Below, in pieces: positions 1,094-32,914 of a stretch of DNA of 64,000 bases. This DNA is from Halobacteriovorax marinus (GTDB lineage: Bacteria; Bdellovibrionota; Bacteriovoracia; Bacteriovoracales; Bacteriovoracaceae): contig MAAO01000007.1 in NCBI GenBank assembly GCA_002163155.1, positions 1-64,000 of the forward strand, in the 5' to 3' direction. Both the position numbers and the translations under genes were made by a program. The notes under the pieces were generated by a model, which was not told the origin of the DNA, searched no databases, and was given only the letters and a program-made list of their open reading frames with translations. Every line of letters starts with the position of its first letter. The first letter of the stretch is position 1.

Positions 1094-1750
1094 TTGCTTA
1101 AAAATATTTACAGTATAGTTGTTCTTGCTTTTACATCTGTAACTCTAGCAGCTCCCCTTAAAGTTGGTTATATTGATGCACCTCCTTTTTCTTATATGTC
1201 TAAAGCAGGGAAGGCTGCAGGTTTACTCCCAGCAATAGCTAATAAAACATTTTCTAAACTTAGTTTAAAACATCGTTTTGAATTCTTACCAGTTGCAAGA
1301 GTCTACAAAAATATTAAAGATGGAACATTGGATCTTTATAATTGTGGGACTAATGAAATGCCTAATACATTTCGTGGTCAAAAGGTTTTACTTTATATGG
1401 ACCTTGGTATTTTCTCAAGAAAAGACGCAAAAGATATTAAAACTCTCGAAGACTTAAGAGGTGAGGATATTGCACTTTTTCTTGGAGCTAGTGCTAGTGG
1501 TATTCAAAAGTTAATTACTGATACTAAGAGTGGTACTCTTTTTCATGAACTAAATAGCATAGATAACATGATCTCATTTGTAAAAAAAAGACGCGCCAAT
1601 CACCTTTTATTATATAAAAGAATGTTTCCTGACTATAAATTAAAAGGGTTCAAATATACTTCTTTAAAAAGAGTTGATTGCCGCTGGATAATTTCAAATA
1701 AGATTCCGGATGCAAAAGAAATATTAAGATTACTTGATGAGAAATCATAA
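1094..1750 (+). CDS. Orphan periplasmic solute-binding protein (SBP_bac_3-like)
   Basis: About 218 residues, secreted. It resembles family 3 extracellular solute-binding proteins: an early segment KVGYIDAPPFSY, where the ligand pocket usually starts, then GLLPAIAN and a C-terminal lobe. I place the start at TTG 1094 because GGAG at 1085-1088 sits five bases upstream and the product then begins directly with a clean signal peptide (LLKNIYSIVVLAFTSVTLA). An in-frame GTG at 1064 has no ribosome site and adds polar residues before the signal. No permease or ATPase gene is adjacent, so it may act as a binding or sensing protein rather than as part of a local ABC importer. It is short for the family (usually about 240-260 residues). 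Confidence 0.7.
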   Translation: MLKNIYSIVVLAFTSVTLAAPLKVGYIDAPPFSYMSKAGKAAGLLPAIANKTFSKLSLKHRFEFLPVARVYKNIKDGTLDLYNCGTNEMPNTFRGQKVLLYMDLGIFSRKDAKDIKTLEDLRGEDIALFLGASASGIQKLITDTKSGTLFHELNSIDNMISFVKKRRANHLLLYKRMFPDYKLKGFKYTSLKRVDCRWIISNKIPDAKEILRLLDEKS

Positions 1751-1825
1751 CTTAAAGCTCTATTCACACTCTGATATTCACTCGTTCAATTTCGAAACTA
1801 TATATATTGTATTCTTATATAGTGC

Positions 1826-3673
1826 CTAAGAGGAGCAACTCATTTTTAAATATCCTCCGAGGTTACGTAAATCCTGATCCTTCTTTTTGTAATACTTGGC
1901 CTCCACTTCAGAGGATTGTTCGGCATAAGGATTGTTATCAAACAATTGTTGAAGAGTATGAATTTCATCGAAGTTACTTAAGTCACTTGCATCACGGTAG
2001 GCTTTAATCAGCATCCATTCTCGTGGAACGTATTTGGGATTTACTTTTTTCATTTTGCTAGAGACATCTTCTGAATCTTCTTTTTTGAGAACTTCGTGCC
2101 ATTGCACTAGCCATTTAGTCCACTCTGCTGCAGCAAAATCAAAGGCGTCATTACTATCGGCGTTTTTGTCGCTAGCTGTATTGTTATAGAATGCATCACG
2201 TAGTTCAGAGCCTTCTGTGGGTATATCACTTAGTTTTCGCCAAAGAATGGTCCAGTCTATGCTTACTTCAGGCGTGGAGTTCATAGTCTTCATAAGTGAT
2301 TCGTATAAGTTTGGAGAATATTTCTTAAGACCCATTTTGAGCGTAAAGGTGTGCTCAACTGCTTTATTCATAACATTTGGGAATTCCTGTAATATCTTTT
2401 CTAGTCGCTCTAGAGGTTCTTTTTCCCCGTCGTCCAGTAAAGGTCTGACTGCAATACATAACATCTTAAAATTTTGGATAGCAGCGTTTGGTTGGTGCAA
2501 GAAAGAATAGTGAAGTCCGCCCCCTGTCCAGGGTTGATAAGTCGGATCAAATTCTTCCATCATTCCAAAAGGACCATAGTCTAAAGTAAACCCACCAACG
2601 GCGCAGTTGTCACTGTTGAAGTTACCTTGGCAAAAGCCAACACGAATCCAGTGGCCCACCAATGTAGAGAGCCGCTTGCCGAACGCTTCAACGAATAATA
2701 ACACTTCTTCTTTAAAATTTTGCGGCTCGAGTGCCATGTCTTTTATTTCTGGATATTCATTTTGGATGGCAAAGTTCACAATCTCTTTCAATTCCTTCAT
2801 GGCATCTGGATGTTCATTTTTTCGTGCTCTACGACCAAAGAGCTCGATCTGACCTACTCTTAATAGGGATGAGGATACTCTGGTCGTTATCGCCGCAGGA
2901 TTTTCTACCATCACATCGGGCTCTTCACTTCTACTGCCTTCTAAGTACCAGGGACGGGCAATTTTTAGAGTCTTGGAGACGATAAGAGACAGTGCCCTTG
3001 AAGTTGGTACACCGAGTGAGGCCATGGCCTCAGAAACAATAAATTCACGAACACTGGAGCGAAGTACGGCACGTCCATCTGCGCCTCGACAGTATGGTGT
3101 TTGGCCACTTCCTTTTAATTGAAATTCCCACCTCGCTGGTCGGTGGTTGCCTCTGGTTCCAAAAGACGTAGTAGGTGTTGAAGTGATGGGGAGCTTTAGT
3201 TCTAAGATAGAAATAGCTCGTCCATCTCCGTATCCGTTTCCTGTTTGGAATGGACATTGGGCGTAGTATTCGTTGCCCATTATACTCAAAGCATATCCAG
3301 TGGCCCAGCCAGTGGAGTGTAATTGCTTAAATTTATTCTGCGATTCGTTTTTTACATTTTTGTCTTTCTGTTGGGCCTCAACAACTGGTGCGGGATCCCC
3401 GGAGAAGAATTTCACAAATTCCTCTGTTGTGGCAATTTCTTCTGGAAAGCCTAACTCCTTAAAAAGTGCCGAGCTATGTGCTATATACAAAGGTTCTGGG
3501 AGAGGAGTTGGTGCAACTTCCACGTAATGTCCGGAGGTCACTTGTCGTGGTCTTTTATCGGCTCCATGATTTCCACTTTGTGGATCACTTGTAAGATTAT
3601 CTAATAGAGAGAAATGAATATCTTTAACGATAGTTTGATAAAAGAGATTATTTTTTTTAAGGCCACCAAACAT
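1826..3673 (-). CDS. selO: SelO/YdiU family protein adenylyltransferase
   Basis: 615 residues. SelO is a pseudokinase-fold enzyme that transfers AMP from ATP to Ser/Thr/Tyr of target proteins. Visible family marks are GNGYGDGRA (about 145-155), the nucleotide-contact stretch KGSGQTPYCRGADGRAVLRSSVREF (about 187-211), NSDN (353-356: catalytic Asp and a metal-binding Asn) and DYGPFG (365-370: second metal Asp). The usual His before GxxNTDN is Gln here (CQGNFNSDN), a difference that may mark a subfamily. The length is above the E. coli homologue (about 480), with inserts and a longer C-terminus. ATG 3673 is preferred over ATG 3685 because GGAAG lies five bases upstream of it. Stand-alone gene. 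Confidence 0.9.
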   Translation of the reverse strand: MFGGLKKNNLFYQTIVKDIHFSLLDNLTSDPQSGNHGADKRPRQVTSGHYVEVAPTPLPEPLYIAHSSALFKELGFPEEIATTEEFVKFFSGDPAPVVEAQQKDKNVKNESQNKFKQLHSTGWATGYALSIMGNEYYAQCPFQTGNGYGDGRAISILELKLPITSTPTTSFGTRGNHRPARWEFQLKGSGQTPYCRGADGRAVLRSSVREFIVSEAMASLGVPTSRALSLIVSKTLKIARPWYLEGSRSEEPDVMVENPAAITTRVSSSLLRVGQIELFGRRARKNEHPDAMKELKEIVNFAIQNEYPEIKDMALEPQNFKEEVLLFVEAFGKRLSTLVGHWIRVGFCQGNFNSDNCAVGGFTLDYGPFGMMEEFDPTYQPWTGGGLHYSFLHQPNAAIQNFKMLCIAVRPLLDDGEKEPLERLEKILQEFPNVMNKAVEHTFTLKMGLKKYSPNLYESLMKTMNSTPEVSIDWTILWRKLSDIPTEGSELRDAFYNNTASDKNADSNDAFDFAAAEWTKWLVQWHEVLKKEDSEDVSSKMKKVNPKYVPREWMLIKAYRDASDLSNFDEIHTLQQLFDNNPYAEQSSEVEAKYYKKKDQDLRNLGGYLKMSCSS

Positions 3674-15340: not shown

Positions 15341-17017
15341 CTACTCCCAAATAATGAACTCTTTTCTTTGATACCAGTCTTTCTCGAAGGAGCTGTAACT
15401 CTTTTCAACCTGATGTCTTTTCACTTTCATGGTGGGAGTCAGTAGGTTATTTTCAATTGACCAAATATCTTTGGCCACTACAGAAAATTGTAGCTTTTCG
15501 TGGTTATGAAGCTCCTCGTTGAGCTCTTTCATTTTTTGGGAGAGCTTTTGTTGAATTTCATCTCTTCCCAAACTCTTGTTGCTTAGCTTTTCACGAATAT
15601 CTTCTGACAAAACAACTACAGCGTAGGGTTGAGGAAATCCACTACCAGATACGCAAGCTTGTTCAGCTAAATTGGTGACAAGAATCTTATTTTCAATAGG
15701 AGCGGGAGCAATATATTTTCCCTTTGAAGTTTTAAATAATTCCTTTACTCGGCCAGTAAGCTTGAGTCTACCTTGTTCATCGATTTCACCGCGGTCTCCA
15801 GTTTTGATAAATCCATCTTCGGTGAAAAGATCTTTTGTTAGTTCTGGGTCCTTGAAATAGCCTATGGTATTGCCAGGACTTTTAACTAGGACTTCATTGT
15901 CTTCACTAAGTCTGTGTTCAACTCCGGGATAAGTATTGCCGACGTAACCGATGCGAGTTTGCCCGGGCATGGAAGCGTGTGAGCAGCAGAAGTTTTCACT
16001 CATGCCATAACCTTCCAAAAGTTCTAGTCCTAGGTTTTTATACCATTCGATAAGTTGCGGAGGAATTGGAGCCGATCCAGTACCGGCGAAGCGCACATGT
16101 TGCAGACCTAATTTTCCAAGAACTTTCTTCTTAACGATTCCGCCTATTATAGGAATGCTGGTTAGAAACTTTAATTTCTTCTCTGGCATCTTGGCGGATA
16201 CACCTTGTTGAAACTTTAACCACAACCGTGGAACTGAGACAAATAATGTTGGTTTCGCTCGCTGTAGATCTTGAATAAAAGTATCCAAGCTTTCAGCAAA
16301 GAAAATCTGACAACCACTATAGAAGGAATGAGTCTCAACCACCCAACGCTCCATAACGTGAGAGAGGGGAAGGTAGGATAACATTCTGTCGACATCACTG
16401 GTTTTAAGTACTTTCGCAATACATTCTGCACTGCTACCCATTGCTTTGAAAGTTATCATGACTCCTTTAGGAGTTCCGGTACTACCAGAGGTATAGACTA
16501 TGGTGGCCAGCTCTTCGCCTTGGTAAGTGGGACTGTCACTGATGGGCGCTAGGCCTTGAGTAACTTTCTCCCAAGTAGGAAGTCCGTGTCCTATTGGTGC
16601 GAGAGGTAAAGCAACCACGGGAAGATCGGCAGGGACGCCTGCTTTCATGTCATCCCAGGTATCAAGTTTTCCTACAAAGAGAAATTTAGCCTCTGAGTGT
16701 TCTAAGATTTGTTGAACACATTCAGCTGTTAAAGTTGGGTAGAGGGGAACACTTATGTGACCTGCCATCCAAATTGCGAGATCACTTATAATCCAGTGCG
16801 CGCAGTTCTTAGAGATGGTCGCTATATTACTTTTCACAGGATAGTCGAGGCTACGTAGGTAGCTGGCCATAACTCTGGCTTCTCTTATAACTTCTTGCCA
16901 GGTGTACTCTGTGACTAATCCGTTTCCAGTAGGTTGAGTGAAGTAAGTCTTATTAGGGGTGTTCTTTTCTCTCCAGTAAACATTTTCCAGAGGTAAGTTC
17001 GTTTCACAAGTGTTCAT
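15341..17017 (-). CDS. Long-chain acyl-CoA synthetase (AMP-forming)
   Basis: 558 residues. It activates fatty acids to acyl-CoA through an acyl-AMP. ANL-superfamily marks in order: TIVYTSGSTGTPKGV (P-loop), SYLPLSHVMERW, LLEGYGMSEN, and KTGDRGEIDEQGRLKLTGRVKELFKTSKGKYIAPAPIE (C-terminal hinge and catalytic-lysine region). Start ATG 17017 has GGGAG seven bases upstream; the in-frame ORF extends to 17191, but that extension is hydrophobic/aromatic and lacks a site. A 21-bp inverted repeat lies 43 bases upstream. Stand-alone gene. Confidence 0.92.
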   Translation of the reverse strand: MNTCETNLPLENVYWREKNTPNKTYFTQPTGNGLVTEYTWQEVIREARVMASYLRSLDYPVKSNIATISKNCAHWIISDLAIWMAGHISVPLYPTLTAECVQQILEHSEAKFLFVGKLDTWDDMKAGVPADLPVVALPLAPIGHGLPTWEKVTQGLAPISDSPTYQGEELATIVYTSGSTGTPKGVMITFKAMGSSAECIAKVLKTSDVDRMLSYLPLSHVMERWVVETHSFYSGCQIFFAESLDTFIQDLQRAKPTLFVSVPRLWLKFQQGVSAKMPEKKLKFLTSIPIIGGIVKKKVLGKLGLQHVRFAGTGSAPIPPQLIEWYKNLGLELLEGYGMSENFCCSHASMPGQTRIGYVGNTYPGVEHRLSEDNEVLVKSPGNTIGYFKDPELTKDLFTEDGFIKTGDRGEIDEQGRLKLTGRVKELFKTSKGKYIAPAPIENKILVTNLAEQACVSGSGFPQPYAVVVLSEDIREKLSNKSLGRDEIQQKLSQKMKELNEELHNHEKLQFSVVAKDIWSIENNLLTPTMKVKRHQVEKSYSSFEKDWYQRKEFIIWE

Positions 17018-17266: not shown

Positions 17267-20200
17267 ATGAAGTATTTGATTAATTACTTAATTGTTTTTG
17301 TGAGTTTATTCTTTTCAAGCCACTCACTCTCTCAACAATCAACACCGAAGCTTGATGATTTAATTCCAACGACTTCTCAATTTTCTATCTTTAAGAATTT
17401 TAAAGTAAGTACCCATATAAGTGGGGATCATCAATTAGTCGTTACAGGAACACTTAATGATAAGCATGTAACGATCACTCGCTCTTTAGATAATAAGAAT
17501 GACTTTTCAGTGAATGCTGATGGGATGTCGCTTTCCGACTTCATTCCAGCGGCGACATCATTAAAGATACTTAATAATTTTAAATTTTTAAAATTTCACT
17601 ACGGCAGTGGATCAGGGTTTGTTAGTGGTCTGATTAATAGTGCTGCAATTACCATCAGCTATAAAGTAGGTGAGAGTAAAGAGTTCTCCATTGAAAGTAC
17701 TGGAGTAAAACTAAAGGACTTTATTCCTGAGGTTTCACAATTTTCACAATTTAATAGGATCTCTCTTAATAAAATTGATGTGAATTCCAAACAATTTGAA
17801 GTTGCTGGAAAACTTAATGGTATTGCGATTTCATTTATCAAGCAAAGAGATGGCACTAAGAACTTCTCTGTTACTAGTACAGGGTTAAAATTAACTGACT
17901 TTGTCACACAAGCAAGCTCGATTCCCTTCTTTTATAACTTCAAACTCTCTAAGCTCAATATTGTTAGCACAAATGTTGAAATAGCAGGAAGTCTAAATTC
18001 AAAAGCTCTTGCTGTGAACTTTGATTTGGCCAAGAAGGCGACTTTTGAAGCCTCAGGAGAAGGATTAAAATTAAAGGATATTGTCTCGCAGGCTTCGAAT
18101 ATCAAGGCCTTTGATAAATTTGAATTTGATAAAGTCTCCATTACCGATGCTCAATTTGAAATAGATGGAAAAGTTAATGGTAAGGTTGTGACATTTGTTA
18201 GTGATAGGAAAATTGCCAACAAGTTTACTGTTACGGGAGAGGCGCTTGGTATTAACGACTTTATTGCTGATGCTTCAAAGATTCCAGCCTTAAGCAAATT
18301 CAAATTTGAATCATTTTCTTATGATAATAGAGAGACCATTGTTATAGGACTTATCAACAATAAGAAAATGGAAGTTGATTATAATTTAAATCAACCGAAG
18401 AACTTTACTTTAAAAACTGCAGGAGTGAAGTTAAGCGATTTTATTCCCAATGTCGCTAGTATTAGTATTCTTAATAAATTTGCCCTAACTGAAGTAGCAG
18501 TTACTGATGACAAATTTGAAATTGATGGAGAAATTAATAATAAGGCGGTTTCTATAATTAGAAATCGTAAAGTTGCCAATAGCTTCTCAGTTACTGGTGC
18601 AAGCTTGAAGCTTTCTGATTTTATAGCGTCCTCTGCTAACGTATCTTTTTTAAATCGTTTTGCTTTTTCAAATTTCACTTACCTTGATAAGGAAATAAAG
18701 GTCGCGGGAAGTATTCAAGGTAAAAATATTGAAATTGATTTTACAAGTGGATTAGATAAATCTTTTAAAATTTCAGGTGAAGGGCTAAAAATCACAGACA
18801 TTGTTCCTGAAGCTGCGAGTTTAAAAGTATTCAATAGTTTTGCCCTTGATCAAGTGATCGTGAATAAAGATAAGTATGAGATTGATGGAACAATCTCTGG
18901 AAAAAAAGTTTCTCTAACCAAACTTAGAGCAGGGGATAAGAATCTTACAATTACAGCTGCAGAGCTAACGGTTGGAGATATCTTTGTAAGTACTCATTCG
19001 ACTCCAGGGCTAAATATTTTAGCCGTTGATAAAATTGAAATAGCTAAGGGGATTATAGAGGTTGAAGTTGAATTAAATGGTGAAAAAATTGATATCGTTT
19101 CTAACTTTAGAAAAGGCGACCAGAATAATTATCTGGCAATCTTCTTTGAAAAACTTGCTGCTTCAACATTCATTCCAGCGGCTGAAGATCACGCCATTGA
19201 TAGTCTACAGTTAAATAAGGCCTTATTTATTATTCAACCAAGTGGAGCGAAGCTAACTAAAATTACAGCAGCTGATCTTCCTGGTGATTTAAAAACACTT
19301 TCTGGTTTAACTGGAACCATGACTTTAAAGGAAGGGGTTAACTTCTCTGGGCATTTAGATGTGAAAAGCTCTGGAGCATTTGCCAATACTTTTAAGGCGC
19401 TAGGAATTGCTGGAGAATCATTTCCACTAAGCGGAACTCTTGGTCGTAATTCATTTAAGGGATTGTCTACTAAAGGTAAGGATGCCGCAAAAGAATTAAA
19501 TGGTGGAGATAAATCAGAACTCTTAAAGAATTTATCACTTTCTATTACTTTACCTGTACCGACACTTCCTGGGCTTGGGAAAATGGTCAAGGTCTCAGAT
19601 GGTGTGAAACTTAGCATAAATGGAAATGCTGACAGTAGTTCTGGAGCTTGGGGGAAATTGCCAAAAGCTTTACAGGCCAGTCGTCCAAAAGGGGAGCTTG
19701 ATATATCTGTAAGCTTTGACATCGTGATTAATGGTTCTGGTATGAAAAAAACCTTAAGTGCATTAGTTGATGTAAATAAGGGAGAAGCTTCTGAGATTGA
19801 TCTAATCGCTATTAGTAATGGTGATTGGGTAAGGCCCTTTGGAATTCCAGATCTTACACTAGAGAAAGGTGGATTCCTTATTAAATTAATTAAGGCCAAA
19901 GGCTCTAGCAGTAAAGAGATTGGTTTCTTTGCCACTGCTGATATTGGAAAAGAAGAGGATGTCTCTGTTATTGCCGATATGAAGCAGGTTAATGGAAAAA
20001 TTTCACTAAACTTCTTTGAACTAGATGGAAAATTCTCCTTAAATGATTTTGCAGGAGGAAAAGCAATTCCTCATGCTGATAAATTTGAATTAGATGAGAT
20101 AAAAATATCTAAAGAAGGTATAGAGGCGATTACGGAGTTAAGTGGTAATAAAGTAAATGCCTTTTTATTTGAACAAGGAAAGGGAAATTTTATCTTTGCC

Positions 20201-23200
20201 GTAGAACAAGATAATTTTAAAATTACCGAATTAATACCGGCTGCTAAGAAGGTTGAACCTCTAAAAGATTTCACTCTTAAAAAAGCAGCACTTATTGTTT
20301 CAAAAGATGGATTTGTTGGTAATCAAGCGACTATGGGCTCGATAGCAAAGGATATGTTTAAAGATATTTTTGGTAGCGCTAAAGGGAATATTAAAATTCC
20401 AGGTGGTATTGGAATACTTGCTGATTTTGATGTGAAGTCCCTTGGCGTCATAGGAAAGGGTCTAAGTAAAATTGGTGTTCATGATGATGCAATCATCATA
20501 GGTGATATTAGTGGTGTCTTTGGTGGAACTCCGGGAATTCAACTGTCATTTATGATGGATCAAGAAGGAGATGCACACGGACTACCTAACAAGGTCGTCT
20601 CTTACAAAAAAGGTGTAACTCCTAGCTTCTTTGTTCAATGGAGCGGGGAAGAGTTAGATGTTGGTTTAAAAATCGCAACTCATGTTAAGGCCGGTAAAGA
20701 AACGCTGGAGCTTGCAACTTCAATTGAACTTGATTTTACTGAAGAAGGTTTAGGTATAAAACTTTTTGGTGAAATGGATGGCGTTTGGCATAACCCTTTT
20801 GGAATACACGGAATATCTCTGGCCGATTTAAAAATGGACATGGGGATTAATGATGTAGGGGAAGTTGAAATTGGTTTTGCTGGTGATGAGCAATTTGGTG
20901 ATTGTACAAATAAAAATAGTGAAGCTTGTGTTGATATAAATATGGCGGTGGAGCTTAAGATCTCCCTTGAAGATGCTCTACCGGATGGAATCGCTTTTAG
21001 AGGTTCGATTAACCACTTAGGGATTCCTGCCATTATTGATATTGCAGAAACTCTCATGGGAATTAAACCTGGCAAATTAAATATTAAAGTTCCTTTCTTT
21101 GCCATTAAAGATGCGATGCTTGCCTTCGCGACTCCTGGAGCAACTGATCCACAACTCGGTTTAGTCAGTGAAGGTTTCGCTTTTGGTGGAACATTTCTTT
21201 TCATGGATAAAGAGTTAGGTAAAGTCTCAGGTTCTGGTTCTCCAACAAGTGGAGTTACCTTTAAAGGTGAAATAGAGGATATTGATTTAAAAGTACTAGA
21301 ATTTAAAAAGAACTTTGTTGATATTGCTATTGGACCTAAGCCTAAATTTATTATCGAATCAAAAATTCGCCTCTTAGGTTCTGAGCAAGATGTAAAGTTA
21401 GATATTGAACCTCCTCATTTTGAATTTGATATTACTGAGAAAATGGGACACTTCGGAACAGCTGATCTTAGAGTGCGTTTAGAAGGTTTCGACTTAATGA
21501 AAGGGAAGTTTGATTCTAATGCCGACATTGCCATTGTTGGTGAATTTAAGTCAGACCTTGTTCCTTGGATGGAAAAAGAAATAACTAAAGGGATAGAAGA
21601 GCTAAGAAAATCTGCCAACGCAAAGTTGGAATCAGATATTAGGGCCCTTGATAGTGCGCAAAAGAAAGTAGATCACATAAATGATAAAATTAGAAAAATT
21701 AAAGCACAAGATGATAAAGCTAAGGCACGTGCCGAGGCAAAAATCGATGGTGCCAAAAGAAGAGTTGAATCACTTAAAAGAGATTACGACCATGATATGC
21801 ACGAAGCAAAACATTGTGGACATTGGTATAGTCATTGGGCCTGTTCTCCTTATTGGGCCATCCGTGGTGGTGCAACGTGGATCGTTTATGAAGTTGCTGA
21901 AGGTGTGCTAGATATTGCTAAAGTGGCGGTGGCAGTTGCCTTTGATTTAGATCCTCGTATCGTTGGACTGGTTGCTCTTAGAGATGTTGAGACTGTGGGT
22001 CTTGCTATTGCTAAGGGAGTTTTAGAAGTCTCTGAACTTGCTGAAAATTTTGTTTTAAAAGGTCTGGAGGCGATACTAAAAGCAGTTCTTGAACATCTAC
22101 CGTTTGAACTCGATCAAGCGATTATTATTGGTGATTTAAAAGATATGATTCAAAAAGATGATCCTCTGATCTTAGATTTAAAATTCAAGATGTTTGGGGT
22201 CAAAATGAGAGAATACTTTGCAGTGAAGCTAAAAGATCCTGTTTATGATGCTATCTCATTTGCCTTACTTCCGGCCATTGCTCTTGATAAGTTAACAGAA
22301 GTGGCCCTTAGTAAAATATCTCCAGCAATTGGACGTTGGGTTCATGCTCATATCGGAGAGAAGTTAGCACAAGCTGAGGCCAACGTTAAAAAGGATGTTA
22401 TGGCCGAAGAGAAAAAATACAAGAAAGTTCTCGATTCATTTGAAAACGGAAATAAGAAATACAAGAAGGCCTTTGTGGATCAAGGTAAGGCCCACGCAAA
22501 AATTGTTGCACAGTATTCTATTTCTGATTTAATGGCTCCAAGTTTAAAATACAAGAGTACATATTTAGCAGTAGGGCATTCAAAGCTCTGTCTTGGTGTT
22601 CAAAAAACAGGTGTAAACGTTGTTCAAGAAGACTGTAAGGATATAGCTGCAGAAAGATGGCATACTGCTGATCTAAAAGATGGATATGTACAACTGCGAA
22701 CAAAAGGTCTTTGTTTGAAAGCAAAAACTAAAGATAATAAGCAAGGTCAACCATTGCAATTAGCAGTTTGTAATAAGAAAGATCTCCATGAGCAATGGAA
22801 GATCATTTCAACAGACGGTTTCTTCGATAAAATAGTAAACCGCTACTCCCAAAAGTGTCTTCACTTTAATACAGAGAACGCGAATCCAAATACCGCTTAC
22901 GCCGTTTGGACATCATGTATGGGTGCTGATAGTCAGACTTTTCGTGCCATTCCTGATGCTGAAAAACCAACTTGGCATGGTATTAACTCAAAGCTAGCGG
23001 ATGAATCAGGTTATTGTTTAGCAATAAAGAGAGAGAAGAGGGCTCGTCTCTCAAAGAAAAAGAAATCTATTCTCCTGTATTCAAAACTATGTAGTAAAAC
23101 AAATGAACGTTATAACTTTATGGAAGAGGTTAACGGAGACATGAAGCTTGTTCATGCCAATCATGGTGGTTGTGTTTATCCTGTTAAGAACTCTAATAAA

Positions 23201-23416
23201 GTTGCCATCCGTGCCTGTGACCGTGGTAAAGATATGTTCTGGAGAAACTACGCTAGTGGTGGAAATTTCATTACAATGCATAACCCATACACGAATAAAT
23301 GTTTAACATTACCAACTCGTGATAAAGGTTCAAAAAGATATAAATTAGCTAAATTGGTGAATTGTTCGCAGCTTAAAAATGCTGGCAAGACAGGTCACTT
23401 AGATTTTATTAAATAA
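17267..23416 (+). CDS. Giant secreted repeat protein with ricin-type lectin domains
   Basis: 2049 residues, the largest product here. Signal peptide 1-22 (YLIVFVSLFFSSHSLS). About 28-640: ten tandem units of roughly 60 residues, each opening with [LI]xDFIP or [LI]xDIV and ending in a beta-rich FSVTGxGLK-like strand. About 640-1430: long beta-rich region with a partial repeat near 930-1000. About 1434-1510: charged coiled coil. About 1520-1740: hydrophobic/amphipathic helices. About 1755-2049: two beta-trefoil lectin-like regions with spaced cysteines and RW/QW motifs (EQWKI). Such lectins bind sugars, so cell-surface attachment is a fair guess. TTG 17252 lies in frame, but ATG 17267 has GGAG upstream and the better signal. 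The stop is nine bases from the secretin-lipoprotein gene, forming an operon. Confidence 0.85.
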   Translation: MKYLINYLIVFVSLFFSSHSLSQQSTPKLDDLIPTTSQFSIFKNFKVSTHISGDHQLVVTGTLNDKHVTITRSLDNKNDFSVNADGMSLSDFIPAATSLKILNNFKFLKFHYGSGSGFVSGLINSAAITISYKVGESKEFSIESTGVKLKDFIPEVSQFSQFNRISLNKIDVNSKQFEVAGKLNGIAISFIKQRDGTKNFSVTSTGLKLTDFVTQASSIPFFYNFKLSKLNIVSTNVEIAGSLNSKALAVNFDLAKKATFEASGEGLKLKDIVSQASNIKAFDKFEFDKVSITDAQFEIDGKVNGKVVTFVSDRKIANKFTVTGEALGINDFIADASKIPALSKFKFESFSYDNRETIVIGLINNKKMEVDYNLNQPKNFTLKTAGVKLSDFIPNVASISILNKFALTEVAVTDDKFEIDGEINNKAVSIIRNRKVANSFSVTGASLKLSDFIASSANVSFLNRFAFSNFTYLDKEIKVAGSIQGKNIEIDFTSGLDKSFKISGEGLKITDIVPEAASLKVFNSFALDQVIVNKDKYEIDGTISGKKVSLTKLRAGDKNLTITAAELTVGDIFVSTHSTPGLNILAVDKIEIAKGIIEVEVELNGEKIDIVSNFRKGDQNNYLAIFFEKLAASTFIPAAEDHAIDSLQLNKALFIIQPSGAKLTKITAADLPGDLKTLSGLTGTMTLKEGVNFSGHLDVKSSGAFANTFKALGIAGESFPLSGTLGRNSFKGLSTKGKDAAKELNGGDKSELLKNLSLSITLPVPTLPGLGKMVKVSDGVKLSINGNADSSSGAWGKLPKALQASRPKGELDISVSFDIVINGSGMKKTLSALVDVNKGEASEIDLIAISNGDWVRPFGIPDLTLEKGGFLIKLIKAKGSSSKEIGFFATADIGKEEDVSVIADMKQVNGKISLNFFELDGKFSLNDFAGGKAIPHADKFELDEIKISKEGIEAITELSGNKVNAFLFEQGKGNFIFAVEQDNFKITELIPAAKKVEPLKDFTLKKAALIVSKDGFVGNQATMGSIAKDMFKDIFGSAKGNIKIPGGIGILADFDVKSLGVIGKGLSKIGVHDDAIIIGDISGVFGGTPGIQLSFMMDQEGDAHGLPNKVVSYKKGVTPSFFVQWSGEELDVGLKIATHVKAGKETLELATSIELDFTEEGLGIKLFGEMDGVWHNPFGIHGISLADLKMDMGINDVGEVEIGFAGDEQFGDCTNKNSEACVDINMAVELKISLEDALPDGIAFRGSINHLGIPAIIDIAETLMGIKPGKLNIKVPFFAIKDAMLAFATPGATDPQLGLVSEGFAFGGTFLFMDKELGKVSGSGSPTSGVTFKGEIEDIDLKVLEFKKNFVDIAIGPKPKFIIESKIRLLGSEQDVKLDIEPPHFEFDITEKMGHFGTADLRVRLEGFDLMKGKFDSNADIAIVGEFKSDLVPWMEKEITKGIEELRKSANAKLESDIRALDSAQKKVDHINDKIRKIKAQDDKAKARAEAKIDGAKRRVESLKRDYDHDMHEAKHCGHWYSHWACSPYWAIRGGATWIVYEVAEGVLDIAKVAVAVAFDLDPRIVGLVALRDVETVGLAIAKGVLEVSELAENFVLKGLEAILKAVLEHLPFELDQAIIIGDLKDMIQKDDPLILDLKFKMFGVKMREYFAVKLKDPVYDAISFALLPAIALDKLTEVALSKISPAIGRWVHAHIGEKLAQAEANVKKDVMAEEKKYKKVLDSFENGNKKYKKAFVDQGKAHAKIVAQYSISDLMAPSLKYKSTYLAVGHSKLCLGVQKTGVNVVQEDCKDIAAERWHTADLKDGYVQLRTKGLCLKAKTKDNKQGQPLQLAVCNKKDLHEQWKIISTDGFFDKIVNRYSQKCLHFNTENANPNTAYAVWTSCMGADSQTFRAIPDAEKPTWHGINSKLADESGYCLAIKREKRARLSKKKKSILLYSKLCSKTNERYNFMEEVNGDMKLVHANHGGCVYPVKNSNKVAIRACDRGKDMFWRNYASGGNFITMHNPYTNKCLTLPTRDKGSKRYKLAKLVNCSQLKNAGKTGHLDFIK
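17348..19180 (+). repeat. Ten ~60-residue protein repeats within the giant gene
   Basis: Units begin with LDDLIP, LSDFIP, LKDFIP, LTDFVT, LKDIVS, INDFIA, LSDFIP, LSDFIA, ITDIVP and VGDIFV, about 180 bases apart. Even and odd units differ: odd units carry a FEIDG-type strand and even units a GLIN- or GSLN-type strand, so the real building block may be a ~120-residue pair. DNA identity between units is low, indicating old duplication. Confidence 0.75.
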
Positions 23417-23425
23417 GGAAGTTTA

Positions 23426-25321
23426 ATGAAAAGTTTAAAACGTAGAAGTTATCTCTCAACATTATTAGTGTTGTTACTCTTATTAGGAAGTTGTTCTACT
23501 TTCACAGGCAGCTCTAAAATTGAGATTCACCCAACAGTTTCAAAAAATGTAGTGGAGATGCTAGAAAATATCTCGGTCAATACGGATGTTAAGGCCAGTG
23601 TAAAGCAGGGTATACAATATATCGCTGAGAATAACTATAAGGACGCTTCTAAATCATTTGGCGAGGCCTTACGATTAGATCCCATTAATGGTCATCTACA
23701 TTTTTTAAATGGTCTTAGTTATCATCTCATGTCACTTAATGGTGATTCTACTAAACTAGAGTTAGCTGAGTCGGGATATAAACTAGCAATCCGTTATGAT
23801 GCTTCAAACCACTGGGCGGCGCTTTATCTTGGAAATATTTACTTTTCAAAACGTCGATACCTAGATGCTCAAAATCAATTCTCTTACGGACTTCTTTACG
23901 CTCCTGAAAATCAGGAACTTCTAAAAGCTTTAAGTGTCGCTTCTTACTATGCTAAAAATATAGAATTAAGCTCTTGGGCAGCAGAAAAGGCATTGAATGA
24001 TAAACCAAAAGATTTATCAAACCTAAGGAATTCTCTTTTTACTAGGGCCGCTGGTGGAGAAAAACGAGATGAGAATAAATCCTTAATTGAATACAAGAAA
24101 TTAATTGAGTCCAAGAAGAATAAACAACCTATTGAAAACTTAGCTTATAAGTCACTTTTAAATCGTGTCAATCAATGGGATCGTTTTCATTATGGAGCAA
24201 AGACAGCACAAAATGGTGAAGCCAGTGTGTTTGGATCATCTTCTCGTGCAGAGGGGACACCACTTAATCTAGATGACTCAGCGAAATCGACAAAAAGTGT
24301 GAACAAGTATAATTCATACTTAAGTTCTTCCAAGAAAAAGAAGAAAAGAAAAGGTCGTCGTAAGAAGAAATTAAACCTTCCAAAAATGACTCTTGTTGAT
24401 GTTGTGATCATTAGAACAGAGGAGAGTCGTACAGAAAATAAAGGGATAAATATTCTTTCTGGACTACAGGCAACTCTAACTGGAACAATGTTTGGTTATA
24501 ATTCTGCAGCGACGGCGGGAACAAAAGATACCACGATTGCTCCAACTCTAACGTTAGCAGGATTGAAATATAATTTTAATATCTTTAATGATGGTTCAAA
24601 TAAAGCAGAAATTCTCGCTCGTCCATCGCTACTCGCAGTAGAAGGCGAGACTTCAGATTTTTCTTCTGGTGCAACTTTACATGTTCAGTTATCAAGTTCG
24701 AATGTTGATGGATCGATGGTGGATGTTCCTGTTGGAATTAACTTAAACGTGACTCCAACTTTCTATGATGATGAAACTGTTAAAATCGATGTTTCGGCTA
24801 AGAGAACATTTCTTGAGAACAATTCTGAGAAAGTTGGGTTTACGGCATTTACGCAAACATCATTAACATCTGTAAAGGCCACGGCAGTATTAAGGTTTGG
24901 TGAGACTCTTATTCTTTCTGGATTATCTGAAAATGAAAATGAATCGTCAGAAGACGGAGTTCCTTTCTTACAGAATATACCAATCATCCAATATCTCTTC
25001 TCTAATAAGCAGAAGTTAAAAACAAAGAAGAATGTTTTGATTTTGCTTACGCCTCATAAGGCGCGTTATGCAGATCGCAATATGGGATCATCACAATTAC
25101 GTAATAAACTCCTTAAGAAGGATGAAAAGAACAAGTTCGTTTTTGAATTACAGGCCAAGGAAAATATCGCTAGAAATAATATTGATGCAGCTCTATTGAA
25201 TCTTGAGAGCAATCTTTACTTTCGTGAATTCAGATCAGGGGATTTACACTTAGACGATTGGCATAATGACTCAACGTTTACTGGTGCACTCTTGCGCTCA
25301 ATGAGCTTTTTGTATTATTAG
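23426..25321 (+). CDS. TPR lipoprotein with C-terminal secretin domain
   Basis: 631 residues. Lipoprotein signal with lipobox LLGSC (Cys23). About 55-190: tetratricopeptide repeats (YIAENNYKDASKSFGEALRLDPINGHLHFLNG and following). About 290-315: very basic linker (KKKKKRKGRRKKK). About 318-555: secretin core with the signature GVPFLQNIPIIQYLFSNKQ followed by a KNVLILLTPH strand as in GspD/PilQ/CpaC. The usual N0/N1 periplasmic domains are missing, replaced by TPRs. It should form or join an outer-membrane channel. It is co-transcribed with the giant lectin protein (nine-base gap, AAGGAAG ribosome site), so it may export or anchor it. Confidence 0.85.
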   Translation: MKSLKRRSYLSTLLVLLLLLGSCSTFTGSSKIEIHPTVSKNVVEMLENISVNTDVKASVKQGIQYIAENNYKDASKSFGEALRLDPINGHLHFLNGLSYHLMSLNGDSTKLELAESGYKLAIRYDASNHWAALYLGNIYFSKRRYLDAQNQFSYGLLYAPENQELLKALSVASYYAKNIELSSWAAEKALNDKPKDLSNLRNSLFTRAAGGEKRDENKSLIEYKKLIESKKNKQPIENLAYKSLLNRVNQWDRFHYGAKTAQNGEASVFGSSSRAEGTPLNLDDSAKSTKSVNKYNSYLSSSKKKKKRKGRRKKKLNLPKMTLVDVVIIRTEESRTENKGINILSGLQATLTGTMFGYNSAATAGTKDTTIAPTLTLAGLKYNFNIFNDGSNKAEILARPSLLAVEGETSDFSSGATLHVQLSSSNVDGSMVDVPVGINLNVTPTFYDDETVKIDVSAKRTFLENNSEKVGFTAFTQTSLTSVKATAVLRFGETLILSGLSENENESSEDGVPFLQNIPIIQYLFSNKQKLKTKKNVLILLTPHKARYADRNMGSSQLRNKLLKKDEKNKFVFELQAKENIARNNIDAALLNLESNLYFREFRSGDLHLDDWHNDSTFTGALLRSMSFLYY

Positions 25322-25342: not shown

Positions 25343-25375
25343 CCAGGTACATAATATATATCATCGTGTGCCTGG
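25343..25375 (+). terminator. Terminator hairpin; repeat copy 2 (CCAGGTACA family)
   Basis: CCAGGTACA (25343-25351) pairs with TGTGCCTGG (25367-25375; one G-U) and is followed by TGCTTTTTCTTT. It ends the giant/secretin operon. It is closely similar, loop included, to the hairpin at 14112-14146, and it overlaps the last codons of the convergent gene at 25361. Confidence 0.65.
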
Positions 25376-29162: not shown

Positions 29163-30899
29163 GTGCATAAAATATCTATACTCATCCTATTTTTATTTAT
29201 CTTTTCTACTACAAAGTTAGGGGATCAAAACTCTATAAGTGGATCACGTTCCATTGCAAGTTTCGAGCAGAGATCTTGTAAGTCTTCAATTTCAAAAATT
29301 ATTCTAAATTATAAATCTAAGTCTTTAGTAGAGAAGCTATCTTCTAGTGTTATCAAGCCAGGAGTTGAAAAGTTATCTAAATTTTCACTTAGATCAAGAC
29401 TAAAGTTTCTTAACCACTTAAATGCTAAGAGAGGAAAATCAAAATTCCTCTCAGAAATGTACGCTAATACAATTAATCAAATGATTACGAAGGGACTTCT
29501 TAGTGAAGAGGATTTTAGTAAGGAGCTGTTTAAGAATAATTCTGGCGCTTATCTCCTAGATTTCTCTTACGGGGAAGTTAGAGTCACTCCCAAGATTTGG
29601 GAAGGACTGCCAACCCAAGATGAAACTATTGATATAATTCTACAAAGAACAACTCCAGGAGTCAGTGAGGCCTTAAAGCTGCGAGAAGTTCTAGAAAATA
29701 CAGAACTAAATCCTCTAGAGCTCAAAGAGTTCGAAAAGCATTTTGTAAGATATCCCAAAGATAAGGATGAATGGAAGCTTCTAAGTGAATACCTAAGTTT
29801 TACAGGATCGATGAGAGAGAAGCAGCAACTTAAGGCCTTGGGTGAACTTCCTAAGCTCTTCTATGAGAGTGATAAGGGTAAGCATTTAAATAATTTTAGA
29901 AGTCTTAGAAAGAATATTGATAAGTATGAAAGTAAGCAAGTAAAGAAGCAGTTAAAGAAAGCTAAGAAAAATGGCATGAGTGATCTTGAAGCAAAAGCTT
30001 TTGCAAAACAAGAGGCGAGGAGAATGACTGAGGTCTACTCCAATCTTAAATATGCATGTCGTTCAACAAAACATACAGAAGAGAGTAAGCAGTCAGCGAA
30101 ACTCACATCAAAGTTCTTTATGGGAATGGGAGTCAGTGCAACTGCTGCTTCATATGGATACTCAAACTGGGACAAAGATAAGACTGAGTTTGAATGGTAT
30201 GGAAAGCTTGCTCATGACTTAAGTTGGAAGATCTTCTTTCAATTTGGATTTAATGCCATTATGACTGATCAATCGGCCACATTTCTAAAAAAGAATCTCG
30301 CCATTCATGCCTTCTACACTCCAGCTGATGCCATAGAAGCTTCTATGTATGAGTTAGAGTTTGGAGAGAAGGATTCCTTTATTAAAGAAGAATTTGAAAA
30401 AATGATCGAGCTTAGAAAGAGTAACGATCCTAAATTTGTCGAAGAGTATAATAAGGCCATTGCAGCTTTAAATCATAAGTACTTTCCTGAACGATTTAGA
30501 AGTCTAGTTAAGAAAATGATTAGTGGTGAAATCCCAACTGAGAAAAATGAGTTTGATGAAATTTTGAGTCTTGAAGAAATAGCAACTGGTGAGCTTGAAG
30601 ATGAAGTTCTTAGGGATAAGTTGATGGAGGCGATTGCGCTGAAGCTCTATCAAGAAAACGCGGGGCAAGTGCAACTTGGTGGACAGTTTCTAGATCGCTA
30701 CGTATTTGTACGCTCATACGATGTCTTAGATGTGCCTAAGAGTTTAATGGTTGGCCTTCTGATATACAAAACTATCTGTATGGGGCCGGCAAATAGTGTT
30801 AGAAATGCCATGATCTTATCGAGTGTTATCTATACTCTTGATCAGGTTATTAGTAAGTTTGTGTATTACAAAATACGAAGAAAAGTCATAAACCAGTAA
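29163..30899 (+). CDS. Large secreted/membrane protein of unknown function
   Basis: 578 residues from GTG 29163 (AAGAAG just upstream). Signal peptide of about 18 residues (SILILFLFIFSTT). The long mature part is helical and charged, with lysine-rich stretches (KQLKKAKKNGMSDLEAKAFAKQEARRM). A hydrophobic segment near 320-330 and two near the C-terminus (about 535-570: VGLLIYKTICMGPANSVRNAMILSSVIY) suggest membrane insertion late in the chain. I recognise no domain. A strong terminator follows directly. Confidence 0.75.
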   Translation: MHKISILILFLFIFSTTKLGDQNSISGSRSIASFEQRSCKSSISKIILNYKSKSLVEKLSSSVIKPGVEKLSKFSLRSRLKFLNHLNAKRGKSKFLSEMYANTINQMITKGLLSEEDFSKELFKNNSGAYLLDFSYGEVRVTPKIWEGLPTQDETIDIILQRTTPGVSEALKLREVLENTELNPLELKEFEKHFVRYPKDKDEWKLLSEYLSFTGSMREKQQLKALGELPKLFYESDKGKHLNNFRSLRKNIDKYESKQVKKQLKKAKKNGMSDLEAKAFAKQEARRMTEVYSNLKYACRSTKHTEESKQSAKLTSKFFMGMGVSATAASYGYSNWDKDKTEFEWYGKLAHDLSWKIFFQFGFNAIMTDQSATFLKKNLAIHAFYTPADAIEASMYELEFGEKDSFIKEEFEKMIELRKSNDPKFVEEYNKAIAALNHKYFPERFRSLVKKMISGEIPTEKNEFDEILSLEEIATGELEDEVLRDKLMEAIALKLYQENAGQVQLGGQFLDRYVFVRSYDVLDVPKSLMVGLLIYKTICMGPANSVRNAMILSSVIYTLDQVISKFVYYKIRRKVINQ

Positions 30900-30925: not shown

Positions 30926-31051
30926 GAATCAATTCTCATTATATCAGGTAGTTAACTTTACTTTGTTCAACTCTTTTTTTATCAATTTTCTTGGCGAATG
31001 ACTTATTTCAAGTATATATTCCAGTTAAATTTATTTTTAAAGGTAAGGGTT

Positions 31052-32914
31052 ATGAGTCACAAAAATTCAATAGATTTTATTAAAAGTGTTTTGGAGAATA
31101 TGCCAGCTGGTTGGCTAGGTTTAACAACACATCGACTTGATATTTATAATGAAGACTTAGCTAAGACTCAATTCTTAGATCAATTAGAAAAACTAAATAC
31201 ACCTAAAAGTGCTGATACTGAAGTCTTGAAAAAAGGTTTAAAAGATCTGCCAACGGCCTTTGATTATATTCGCCTAGGGCATCCATTATCTTGTATTTTA
31301 GAGTGGGCAATTGCAAAAGCAAAAAATCTTAAAGAAGAAAGCGTCATTAGTTTTTCATCACAGACAATGCCTGTCTTAGCGATACTAAGAAAAAACTTAC
31401 TTGAAAATATCAATACTCAAATTCTTTATAAGAATGAATTACCACAGCACTTTGATGCTGAGGTTTTAAAAAATGTTTATGGTTATAAGTTTGAACTCAA
31501 AAAAATTAATACTTATGAAGAGGTTTCAAGTTTTAACGGTAGTACTATAGTACTAACTGAATTTGCTGAAGCTTGGAATATAGAACTAAAAAGTGAAATT
31601 GATTTTGCCATTAGTATTGATCCAGAGCTTGGAAGTATTGTTCTAGTGAACGGAGAAAAAAGCGTTGCCTATATTTCAGAAATTCAACACGTAAGAAGAA
31701 GAGAGACTATTGCAATGACTCCTCGTGATTGCTTTACAGTCTTAGAGGGATTAGTTGGAAAGACTCCTAAAACGAATGATACCGGCCTTAATCAAAAGAT
31801 TAAGTCTCTCACAGTAAAGACTATTAACGATATTACAAATACATCTTCAGATGCAACGATAGGATCATGTGGATTATCTGTTCAATACGCAATTATGATG
31901 GGTCTTATTCATGATTCCCTAGATAAGCATCCAGGAAAAGAGATTAAGTTTATCGTACCTCCAAATTGTTACGGGGGAACTAATGATCAAGCCAGAAGAG
32001 TTGCTGCCTGTGTTGCAAATGTTGAAGTCGTAGACTTACCTGTAGACGGTGGTCAAGATATGGTGACAAGTATTGAGAGGGTTTTAGATCAAGTTGCTAG
32101 TGTTGATGCTATCCCTTTTATCATAGGAGAGATTCCAACAAACCCTAGAGTTGAGGTTCCTGATTTAGTGAGACTAAAAGACGCTTTAGGAAAGGATAGA
32201 AAAACTAAAGATGGAAACAGCTCTATTGCTCCAGTTTTTATTTTAGATCAAACATTTTGTCCCAATGTTAAATTTCTAGGAGAGGGAGATATTCTCTCTA
32301 CTGTTAAGACCATTTCTTATGTAAGTGGCTCAAAATTTCCTTCTGGTGGACTTTGTACTGCAGGTTACTGTGTGGCAAATGAAAAAGCTGAAGCATTGAT
32401 GGAATACATTGATAAGCACTTAAAGCTCTGTGGAAATGAAGCCACAGCTTTTCAAGTAGAAACATTATCTACTGAGATGCCTTCAATGAATCAAAGAATT
32501 GACGATGCTTATAAGAATACACTTGGTTTTGTAAACTTCATTAAAGAAACTCTACCCGCAGCAAAAATTAATTTTGTCTCTGAAGAGTTAGCAAGTGCTG
32601 GTTTTACTCCATCTGTTTTCTCATTAGATCTTCCTGTAGAAGGCGAGACAGCTGAACAAAAAGAAACTCACAAAAGAGACTTAAACTTAAAGTTAATCAA
32701 ATTAATGATCAGTGAAATACCTCATGAAAGTAAACACTGTGTGAGTTACGGACAACTTGCGGGATGTTATTGGACAGTTCCAGCGACATCCACTCAAGGA
32801 ACGACTAAAGAAGGCGATAAGGATTATATTGTGAGAGTCGCAATTTCTCCGAAGTTTGATTTGGACCTTCATAACAAGGTCTTTGCTCGTTTTTGTGAGG
32901 AATATATAAAATAG
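31052..32914 (+). CDS. PLP-dependent Cys/Met-metabolism-like enzyme with long N-terminal domain
   Basis: 620 residues. The C-terminal ~350 residues resemble fold-type I trans-sulfuration enzymes (cystathionine synthase/lyase, OAH sulfhydrylase): GSCGLSVQYAIMMGL, PNCYGGTNDQARR, FIIGEIPTNPRVEVPDL, FILDQTFCPN and SYVSGSKFPSGGLCTAG, where K428 is the probable PLP lysine. The N-terminal ~260 residues are an additional domain I do not recognise. Family enzymes are about 400 residues, so this is clearly extended, somewhat as in the ~640-residue fungal cystathionine gamma-synthases. ATG 31052 is preferred (GGTAAGGGTT upstream) over a start at 30998. Confidence 0.8.
   Translation: MSHKNSIDFIKSVLENMPAGWLGLTTHRLDIYNEDLAKTQFLDQLEKLNTPKSADTEVLKKGLKDLPTAFDYIRLGHPLSCILEWAIAKAKNLKEESVISFSSQTMPVLAILRKNLLENINTQILYKNELPQHFDAEVLKNVYGYKFELKKINTYEEVSSFNGSTIVLTEFAEAWNIELKSEIDFAISIDPELGSIVLVNGEKSVAYISEIQHVRRRETIAMTPRDCFTVLEGLVGKTPKTNDTGLNQKIKSLTVKTINDITNTSSDATIGSCGLSVQYAIMMGLIHDSLDKHPGKEIKFIVPPNCYGGTNDQARRVAACVANVEVVDLPVDGGQDMVTSIERVLDQVASVDAIPFIIGEIPTNPRVEVPDLVRLKDALGKDRKTKDGNSSIAPVFILDQTFCPNVKFLGEGDILSTVKTISYVSGSKFPSGGLCTAGYCVANEKAEALMEYIDKHLKLCGNEATAFQVETLSTEMPSMNQRIDDAYKNTLGFVNFIKETLPAAKINFVSEELASAGFTPSVFSLDLPVEGETAEQKETHKRDLNLKLIKLMISEIPHESKHCVSYGQLAGCYWTVPATSTQGTTKEGDKDYIVRVAISPKFDLDLHNKVFARFCEEYIK

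What the first reader, a model, noticed from the sequence alone, without database searches (positions are those of the whole stretch)
17267..25321. Two-gene operon pairing a 2049-residue lectin-ended repeat protein with a TPR-secretin lipoprotein
Seen: a signal-peptide protein with ten ~60-residue repeats, coiled coil and two ricin-like trefoil regions, followed nine bases later by a lipoprotein whose C-terminus has a secretin signature (GVPFLQNIPIIQYLF) but whose usual N0/N1 domains are replaced by TPRs. Known: secretins form outer-membrane gates for T2SS/T4P/Tad. Inferred: a dedicated export or surface-anchoring system, with the lipoprotein acting as gate or anchor for one giant adhesin-like substrate, possibly for prey recognition.
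Basis: partly seen in the sequence, partly recalled or inferred. Interest (0 to 1): 0.82.

Follow-up and report, generated by a model that had tools for sequence, protein, structure and literature searches.

The report
Giant lectin paired with TPR-fused secretin
Two neighbouring genes encode a very long, sugar-binding-tipped secreted protein and a lipid-anchored outer-membrane pore-type protein; this pair recurs together in bacteria from at least three other phyla, which points to an undescribed way of exporting or displaying giant lectins on the cell surface.

Summary
P0001 (17267-23416, 2049 aa) has a signal peptide, ten repeats of exactly 60 residues, a long beta-rich core, a helical segment and two C-terminal beta-trefoils. 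Nine bases later, P0002 (23426-25321, 631 aa) is a lipoprotein with N-terminal TPRs and a C-terminal secretin domain; no N0/N1-type domain was detectable in it or in 12 relatives. The pair is a conserved module. A scan for P0002 relatives found 72 loci; 26 have a P0001-type core beside the secretin (all ten close Elusimicrobia loci; Alphaproteobacteria; a Desulfovibrionaceae), and 15 more have large tectonin-propeller lectins there instead. Searching by the giant alone also found the secretin: 20 of 26 giant-bearing genomes in one order have it, against 33 of 291 others (Fisher p 1e-12). It is not a Bdellovibrionota trait: the giant is in 1 of 369 genomes of the window's phylum and absent from four congeners, so it was probably acquired horizontally, though not recently by composition. 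Secretion ATPases are nearly absent nearby. Best reading: a TPR-pilotin/secretin fusion forms a self-piloting outer-membrane channel that exports or displays a dedicated, lectin-tipped shaft. Pairing is well supported; export and any role in prey recognition are inference.

The parts
17267..23416 (+). Giant protein P0001, 2049 aa: signal peptide, 60-residue repeats, core, helical segment, two lectin trefoils
   Evidence: ORF and translation; homologues 1851-2671 aa next to the same secretin elsewhere
17267..17335 (+). Sec-type signal peptide, residues 1-23 (MKYLINYLIVFVSLFFSSHSLSQ), no lipobox
   Evidence: sequence read directly
17351..19150 (+). Ten tandem 60-residue repeats (residues 29-628), with a 120-residue alternation
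   Evidence: autocorrelation; AF2 secondary structure
19064..21556 (+). Beta-rich core (residues about 600-1430), best-conserved region, no known fold found
   Evidence: 50-55% identity to Elusimicrobia giants over residues 560-1740; AF2; no convincing PDB match
21557..22513 (+). Helical/coiled-coil segment (residues about 1431-1749)
   Evidence: AF2, modest pLDDT of 40-77; HMM 'cc' conserved across giants
22535..22957 (+). Ricin-type beta-trefoil 1 (residues 1757-1897)
   Evidence: PF00652; structural matches Z 15-18
22979..23413 (+). Ricin-type beta-trefoil 2 (residues 1905-2049)
   Evidence: structural matches Z about 15-16
23417..23425 (+). Nine-base intergenic gap with a GGAAG ribosome-binding-like motif; no terminator found between the genes
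   Evidence: sequence, scan
23426..25321 (+). P0002, TPR-secretin lipoprotein, 631 aa
   Evidence: ORF; 72 related loci
23426..23494 (+). Lipoprotein signal peptide with lipobox LGSC; Cys23 invariant in the 13-member alignment
   Evidence: lipobox found in 64 of 72 loci by script
23603..24070 (+). TPR domain (residues about 60-215), weakly like the PilW/PilF pilotin model
   Evidence: TPR families in 11 of 13 members; TIGR02521 E 1.2e-7
24383..24595 (+). Conserved stretch before the secretin core (residues 320-390)
   Evidence: alignments
24596..25057 (+). Secretin beta-domain (residues 391-544) with GVPFLQNIPIIQYLF
   Evidence: PF00263; profile matches to solved GspD/RcpA/PilQ chains
25193..25318 (+). 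Conserved C-terminal tail ending FLYY (residues 590-631)
   Evidence: alignment; C-terminal tripeptides such as LYY/LFY/LWY in most loci
25343..25375 (+). Terminator-like inverted repeat CCAGGTACA ... TGTGCCTGG followed by TGCTTTTTCTTT
   Evidence: read by eye (sequence); not reported by the scan, whose loop limit is 8 bases

Best explanation
A two-component outer-membrane export/display module. Sec exports both proteins to the periplasm (inferred from their signal peptides). P0002 is lipidated at Cys23 and inserted in the outer membrane; its own TPR domain takes the place of a separate TPR pilotin (TadD/PilF type), and its secretin domain assembles into a ring-shaped channel (inferred). Lacking N0/N1, the ring is not expected to dock on a T2SS/T4P inner-membrane platform. 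The giant partner, whose gene lies next to it, is captured in the periplasm and passes through or lodges in the ring, so that a long repeat shaft presents C-terminal sugar-binding modules outside the cell. Shown here: domain make-up, conserved pairing, interchangeable lectin modules, scarcity of a secretion ATPase nearby. Inferred: ring formation, export, surface display, glycan binding.
For: Conserved pairing across Elusimicrobiota, Alphaproteobacteria and Desulfovibrionaceae, in upstream, divergent and convergent arrangements. Searching with the giant alone finds the secretin: an Elusimicrobia-phylum genome not among the first 72 loci has it directly downstream, and in one order 20 of 26 giant genomes carry it against 33 of 291 others (Fisher p 1e-12), 17 of the 20 on the same contig within about 12 kb. 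Other members of the secretin family sit next to other large propeller-lectin proteins (tectonin PF19193, hemopexin). Lectin modules at the giants' ends vary (ricin B, ricin+DM9, ricin+tectonin). Secretin domain in 13 of 13 members with no N0/N1. Lipobox in 64 of 72 by script. GspE/TadA-type ATPases beside only 2 loci, L045 and L111, of those examined. Secretin and giant trees show the same main groups. In Tad, the last residues of the RcpA secretin bind the groove of the TPR lipoprotein TadD and are needed for assembly (PMC10499894); here the TPRs are fused in and the C-terminal tail is conserved.
Against: No direct evidence of export, ring formation or sugar binding. The energy source for moving a 2049-residue protein without a motor is unknown. 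Six genomes carry a giant but no detectable TPR-secretin, two of them with intact full-length giants (G725, G731), so the dependence is not absolute or another secretin can serve. The TPR-secretin also occurs without the giant (33 genomes; Asticcacaulis loci; G141). Sampled genomes are related, so the Fisher p is optimistic. Neither the P0002 monomer nor its oligomer was modelled.
Confidence: 0.52

Rival explanations
1. The TPR-secretin is an outer-membrane channel for a polysaccharide or another polymer (as the TPR-barrel proteins PgaA, BcsC, PelB work), and the lectin partners bind and hold that polymer rather than being its cargo.
For: TPR plus outer-membrane pore in one chain is the layout of PgaA-type exporters (PMC9384988, found; otherwise my knowledge); partners are sugar-binding-type proteins in nearly every variant.
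Against: No polysaccharide synthase recognised next to the window operon by reading the ORFs or among the recurrent neighbour groups read. Secretins are known protein or filament channels.
Confidence: 0.14
2. The giant stays in the periplasm or at the inner face of the outer membrane, for example as an envelope-spanning beta scaffold or lipid/glycan carrier, and the TPR-secretin ring is its outer-membrane anchor.
For: The beta repeats give weak matches to OspA, LptD and ApoB (Z up to about 8); no recognised surface-sorting signal in the giant.
Against: The matches are at background level; C-terminal ricin, tectonin and DM9 modules make most sense outside the cell; a large channel would be unnecessary.
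Confidence: 0.16
3. The giant is an ordinary T2SS substrate of the host, and P0002 is an accessory of that or of the Tad/T4P machinery.
For: The genome has five other secretins; beside three of them lies an ATPase of the GspE or Tad type.
Against: P0002 scores far below the GspD, PilQ and SctC cut-offs and has no N0 for docking; loci examined almost never carry T2SS ATPases; the pair recurs across phyla as a unit.
Confidence: 0.08
4. The giant is a lectin-targeted toxin or effector used against other cells, and the pore is its release route.
For: Ricin-type lectin arrays are common targeting modules of toxins (structural matches); patchy distribution.
Against: No catalytic or pore-forming domain detected; no immunity-like partner gene recognised; conserved very large shaft.
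Confidence: 0.08
5. The two genes are neighbours by chance.
For: None.
Against: Adjacency recurs in at least three phyla and in reciprocal searches.
Confidence: 0.01

Closest known systems
Tad secretin RcpA with its TPR pilotin TadD (P. aeruginosa)
   Same: Secretin domain (best single-sequence PDB match, 8odn); an outer-membrane TPR lipoprotein serves the secretin; the C-terminal tail of the secretin matters for assembly (PMC10499894).
   Different: Two separate proteins in Tad; RcpA has a VirB9-like N-domain; Tad has an ATPase, a platform and pilins, which do not accompany this pair. P0002 is one chain, with a giant lectin as its genomic partner.
Lipidated ('self-piloting') secretins such as HxcQ (named in papers; details from my knowledge)
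   Same: Secretin carrying its own lipid anchor.
   Different: HxcQ belongs to a full T2SS and keeps GspD N-domains; P0002 has TPRs instead and no T2SS neighbours.
Two-partner secretion (type Vb, FhaB/FhaC; my knowledge)
   Same: Gene pair of one very large exoprotein and one dedicated outer-membrane translocator, no ATPase.
   Different: The translocator here is secretin-type, not an Omp85-type barrel; no TPS domain in the giant was recognised by Pfam or NCBIfam.
TPR-barrel polysaccharide exporters (PgaA, BcsC, PelB; my knowledge)
   Same: Periplasmic TPRs joined to an outer-membrane pore.
   Different: Pore is a secretin, not a monomeric barrel; no synthase operon.

Membership tests
Secretin superfamily (PF00263) | Secretin beta-domain above curated cut-off | tested here: met
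   107.7 bits vs 27.5; 13 of 13 members match
Classical secretins with N-domains | N-terminal periplasmic ring domains (N0/STN, N1/Secretin_N, BON) | tested here: not met
   no such family at E<=0.01 in any of 13 members; so P0002 is filed only as a secretin-domain protein
Secretin superfamily (PF00263) | Outer-membrane ring of 12-15 subunits | not testable with these tools
   no oligomer modelling or biochemistry available
T2SS GspD | Scores over NCBIfam equivalog cut-off | tested here: not met
   TIGR02517 72.4 vs 351.35 bits
T2SS GspD | Encoded with GspE-type ATPase | tested here: not met
   only 2 TPR-secretin loci (L045, L111) have one nearby; none recognised beside the window pair by reading ORFs
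T4P PilQ / T3SS SctC | Scores over NCBIfam cut-offs | tested here: not met
   TIGR02515 74.9 vs 284.35; TIGR02516 68 vs 238.45
TPR pilotin (PilF/PilW, TadD) | TPR outer-membrane lipoprotein serving a secretin | tested here: inconclusive
   lipobox and TPRs present; TIGR02521 E 1.2e-7 but 31.5 vs 154 bits, and TPR models cross-match
Ricin-type lectin (PF00652) | Beta-trefoil fold and family score over cut-off | tested here: met
   59.4 vs 29 bits; two trefoils by structure
Ricin-type lectin (PF00652) | Sugar binding | not testable with these tools
   needs a glycan-binding assay
Two-partner secretion (type Vb) | Omp85-type TpsB translocator with POTRA domains | tested here: not met
   P0002 matches secretin and TPR models, no Omp85/POTRA model

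The most novel reading that the evidence does not exclude
A secretin-based two-partner secretion system, distinct from the numbered secretion types: a TPR-pilotin/secretin fusion lipoprotein by itself forms the outer-membrane channel and, without any inner-membrane motor, exports and displays one dedicated giant shaft protein with exchangeable lectin tips (ricin, tectonin, DM9), carried between phyla as a two-gene module.
Probability: 0.35. Interest if true: 0.9.

Novelty: new variant of a known kind. Interest (0 to 1): 0.72.

Why it matters
If right, secretins are not always parts of large pilus or T2SS machines but can work as stand-alone outer-membrane gates for a dedicated giant surface lectin. 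It offers a minimal two-gene system in which to ask how a secretin is piloted, gated and energised, and links secretin biology to glycan recognition. I found no description in the papers searched, and the one annotated record I opened calls the secretin only 'tetratricopeptide repeat protein'.

Tried and rejected
Relatives of P0001 in plasmids and phages: none. Relatives of A1 in viral contigs: none. Apparent fusion of giant and secretin in L053 (3284-aa open frame): rejected, the two lie in different frames. Fold search of repeats and core: only background-level matches (OspA, LptD, ApoB; Z up to 8.3), so no fold is claimed; lectins fill the list for the second model, so the core is barely tested there. 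Composition as a sign of recent transfer: none; operon GC about 36.4% vs window 35.6%, codon use ordinary. Empty-site comparison in congeners: the flanking AMP-ligase gene is itself absent from them, so it could not be done. The Rokubacteria locus L059 appears to be the same sequence as Elusimicrobia L058 and was not counted as evidence for another phylum.
Full report
Observation. The window holds two genes on the + strand nine bases apart: P0001 (17267-23416, 2049 aa) and P0002 (23426-25321, 631 aa). No terminator was found between them, and a terminator-like inverted repeat follows P0002 at 25343-25375 (sequence, by eye; scan). The gene before is divergent and the small one after is convergent, so this is most simply a two-gene unit.

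Anatomy of the giant. P0001 begins with a Sec signal peptide without lipobox. Residues 29-628 are ten repeats of exactly 60 residues with a 120-residue alternation; autocorrelation at lags 60 and 120 is far beyond 200 shuffles. AlphaFold2 on an 18-sequence alignment gives each repeat as three short helices and four strands (pLDDT 79.9). A beta-rich core follows, then long helices, then two beta-trefoils at 1757-1897 and 1905-2049 with single-trefoil Z 15-18 to ricin-type lectins. The repeats and core have no convincing relative of known structure: best Z 8.3, at the background level the tool warns of.

Anatomy of the lipoprotein. P0002 has a lipobox (Cys23, invariant in the alignment), TPRs at about 60-215, a secretin domain at 391-544 (107.7 bits vs cut-off 27.5) and a conserved C-terminal tail ending FLYY. 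It scores far below the GspD, PilQ and SctC cut-offs.

Is the pair conserved? A scan of one genome per species with a three-sequence profile gave 72 loci. All ten closest Elusimicrobia loci (L041-L049, L054) carry a P0001 homologue immediately upstream; nine are complete at 2622-2671 aa and L046 is cut by its contig end. Their core is 50-55% identical to P0001 and the complete ones have extra N-terminal repeats. A homologue also sits beside the secretin in Alphaproteobacteria L050, L052 and L055 and Desulfovibrionaceae L053 (same strand), Ferrovibrio L051 (convergent), L062 and L058 (divergent) and L056 (about 3 kb away). With the more distant ones, 26 of 72 loci have a giant-core neighbour. 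Fifteen more have large tectonin-propeller proteins, usually directly downstream, and L057 a hemopexin propeller.

Reciprocal test. Searching with the giant's core alone found 9 of 248 genomes in the phylum of G369 (Elusimicrobiota); the one not met before, G638, has the secretin directly downstream. In the order of G378, 26 of 317 genomes have the giant and 53 the TPR-secretin at E<=1e-60; 20 have both (Fisher odds 26, p 1e-12; relatedness makes this optimistic), 17 of them on one contig within about 12 kb. Giant open frames there reach 6146 residues. Six genomes have a giant and no TPR-secretin, two of them with intact giants; these are the strongest evidence against strict dependence. Where the secretin lacks the giant, tectonin proteins were its commonest neighbours among the loci examined.

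Exchangeable ends. The giants share core and helical segment but end differently: two ricin trefoils, ricin plus DM9 (L056), ricin plus tectonin (L169), and endings that read like DM9 in L168, L170 and L171 (my reading of the sequences).

Distribution. Within the window's phylum the giant is in 1 of 369 genomes and the TPR-secretin in 2 of 291; the second, G141, has no giant and has a caspase-like gene nearby (by reading). Four congeners lack both. Trees of secretin and giant core recover the same main groups, and one group mixes Alphaproteobacteria with Desulfovibrionaceae. The simplest account is horizontal spread of the module; the window copy shows no compositional sign of recent arrival. 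The adjacent AMP-ligase gene is also missing from the congeners, so the region may be a species-specific island.

Mechanism. The genome has five other secretins, three of them beside an ATPase of the GspE or Tad type, so P0002 is an extra. Among the neighbours of 86 TPR-secretin stretches only L045 and L111 show a GspE/TadA-type ATPase, and P0002 lacks N0, which in T2SS couples the secretin to the inner membrane (PMC10499894). In that paper the secretin RcpA needs the TPR lipoprotein TadD, whose groove binds RcpA's last residues. P0002 reads as a fusion of the two parts, and its C-terminal aromatic tail is widely conserved; I infer a self-piloting ring. The paired giant, with repeats of variable number and sugar-binding ends, is the obvious candidate for cargo or displayed shaft. 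How it is moved without a motor is open: folding outside, or lodging in the ring, are possibilities not tested here.

Literature. Searches of the held library for TPR-secretin fusions, secretins with tectonins, and Elusimicrobia secretins found no description of this module. Absence there does not prove absence elsewhere.

Verdict. The feature is real and conserved. It is filed as a secretin-domain protein of a new architecture with a dedicated giant lectin partner; that it is a secretion system is the best but unproven explanation. Prey recognition is not supported by the distribution.

Noticed in passing
L155 (G682:C140:1-20000), L162 (G686:C1), L156 (G892:C22): Giant-core proteins of about 4,100-6,150 residues lie next to TPR-secretins in the order of G378; G892 has a TPR-secretin on each side of the giant.
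   Followed up: partly
L069, L080, L082: Micavibrio-labelled and other alphaproteobacterial contigs have TPR-secretin, then a tectonin protein of about 830-840 aa, then a giant of about 2,480 aa in a row; Micavibrio includes epibiotic predators.
   Followed up: no
L038:7588-8931 (-) and L038:5080-6795 (-): In G141 the TPR-secretin has a caspase-like gene (by reading) and small Cys-rich proteins nearby, and no giant.
   Followed up: no
L004 (G000:C13:160137-163583), ORF at 1495-2742 (-): The same genome has another short secretin-domain protein with a lipobox-like N-terminus (416-codon frame) and no secretion ATPase in the 3.4 kb stretch fetched.
   Followed up: no
L058 and L059; L092 and L093: Contigs that appear to be the same sequence sit in MAGs given to different taxa (Elusimicrobia/Rokubacteria; Burkholderiales/Rubrivivax), so a label may reflect contamination.
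   Followed up: no
window 15344-17017 (-): The AMP-ligase gene next to the operon has no match at E<=1e-30 in the four congeners, hinting at a species-specific region.
   Followed up: partly
window 29163-30899 (+) and 30998-32914 (+): Two consecutive ORFs (578 and 638 aa) without any Pfam match.
   Followed up: no
L095, L098, L101, L106, L109, L110: In Asticcacaulis the TPR-secretin follows a conserved gene of about 200 aa whose product seems to carry a Tat-like leader (by reading), a different partner type; most of these secretins end in LP instead of YY.
   Followed up: no
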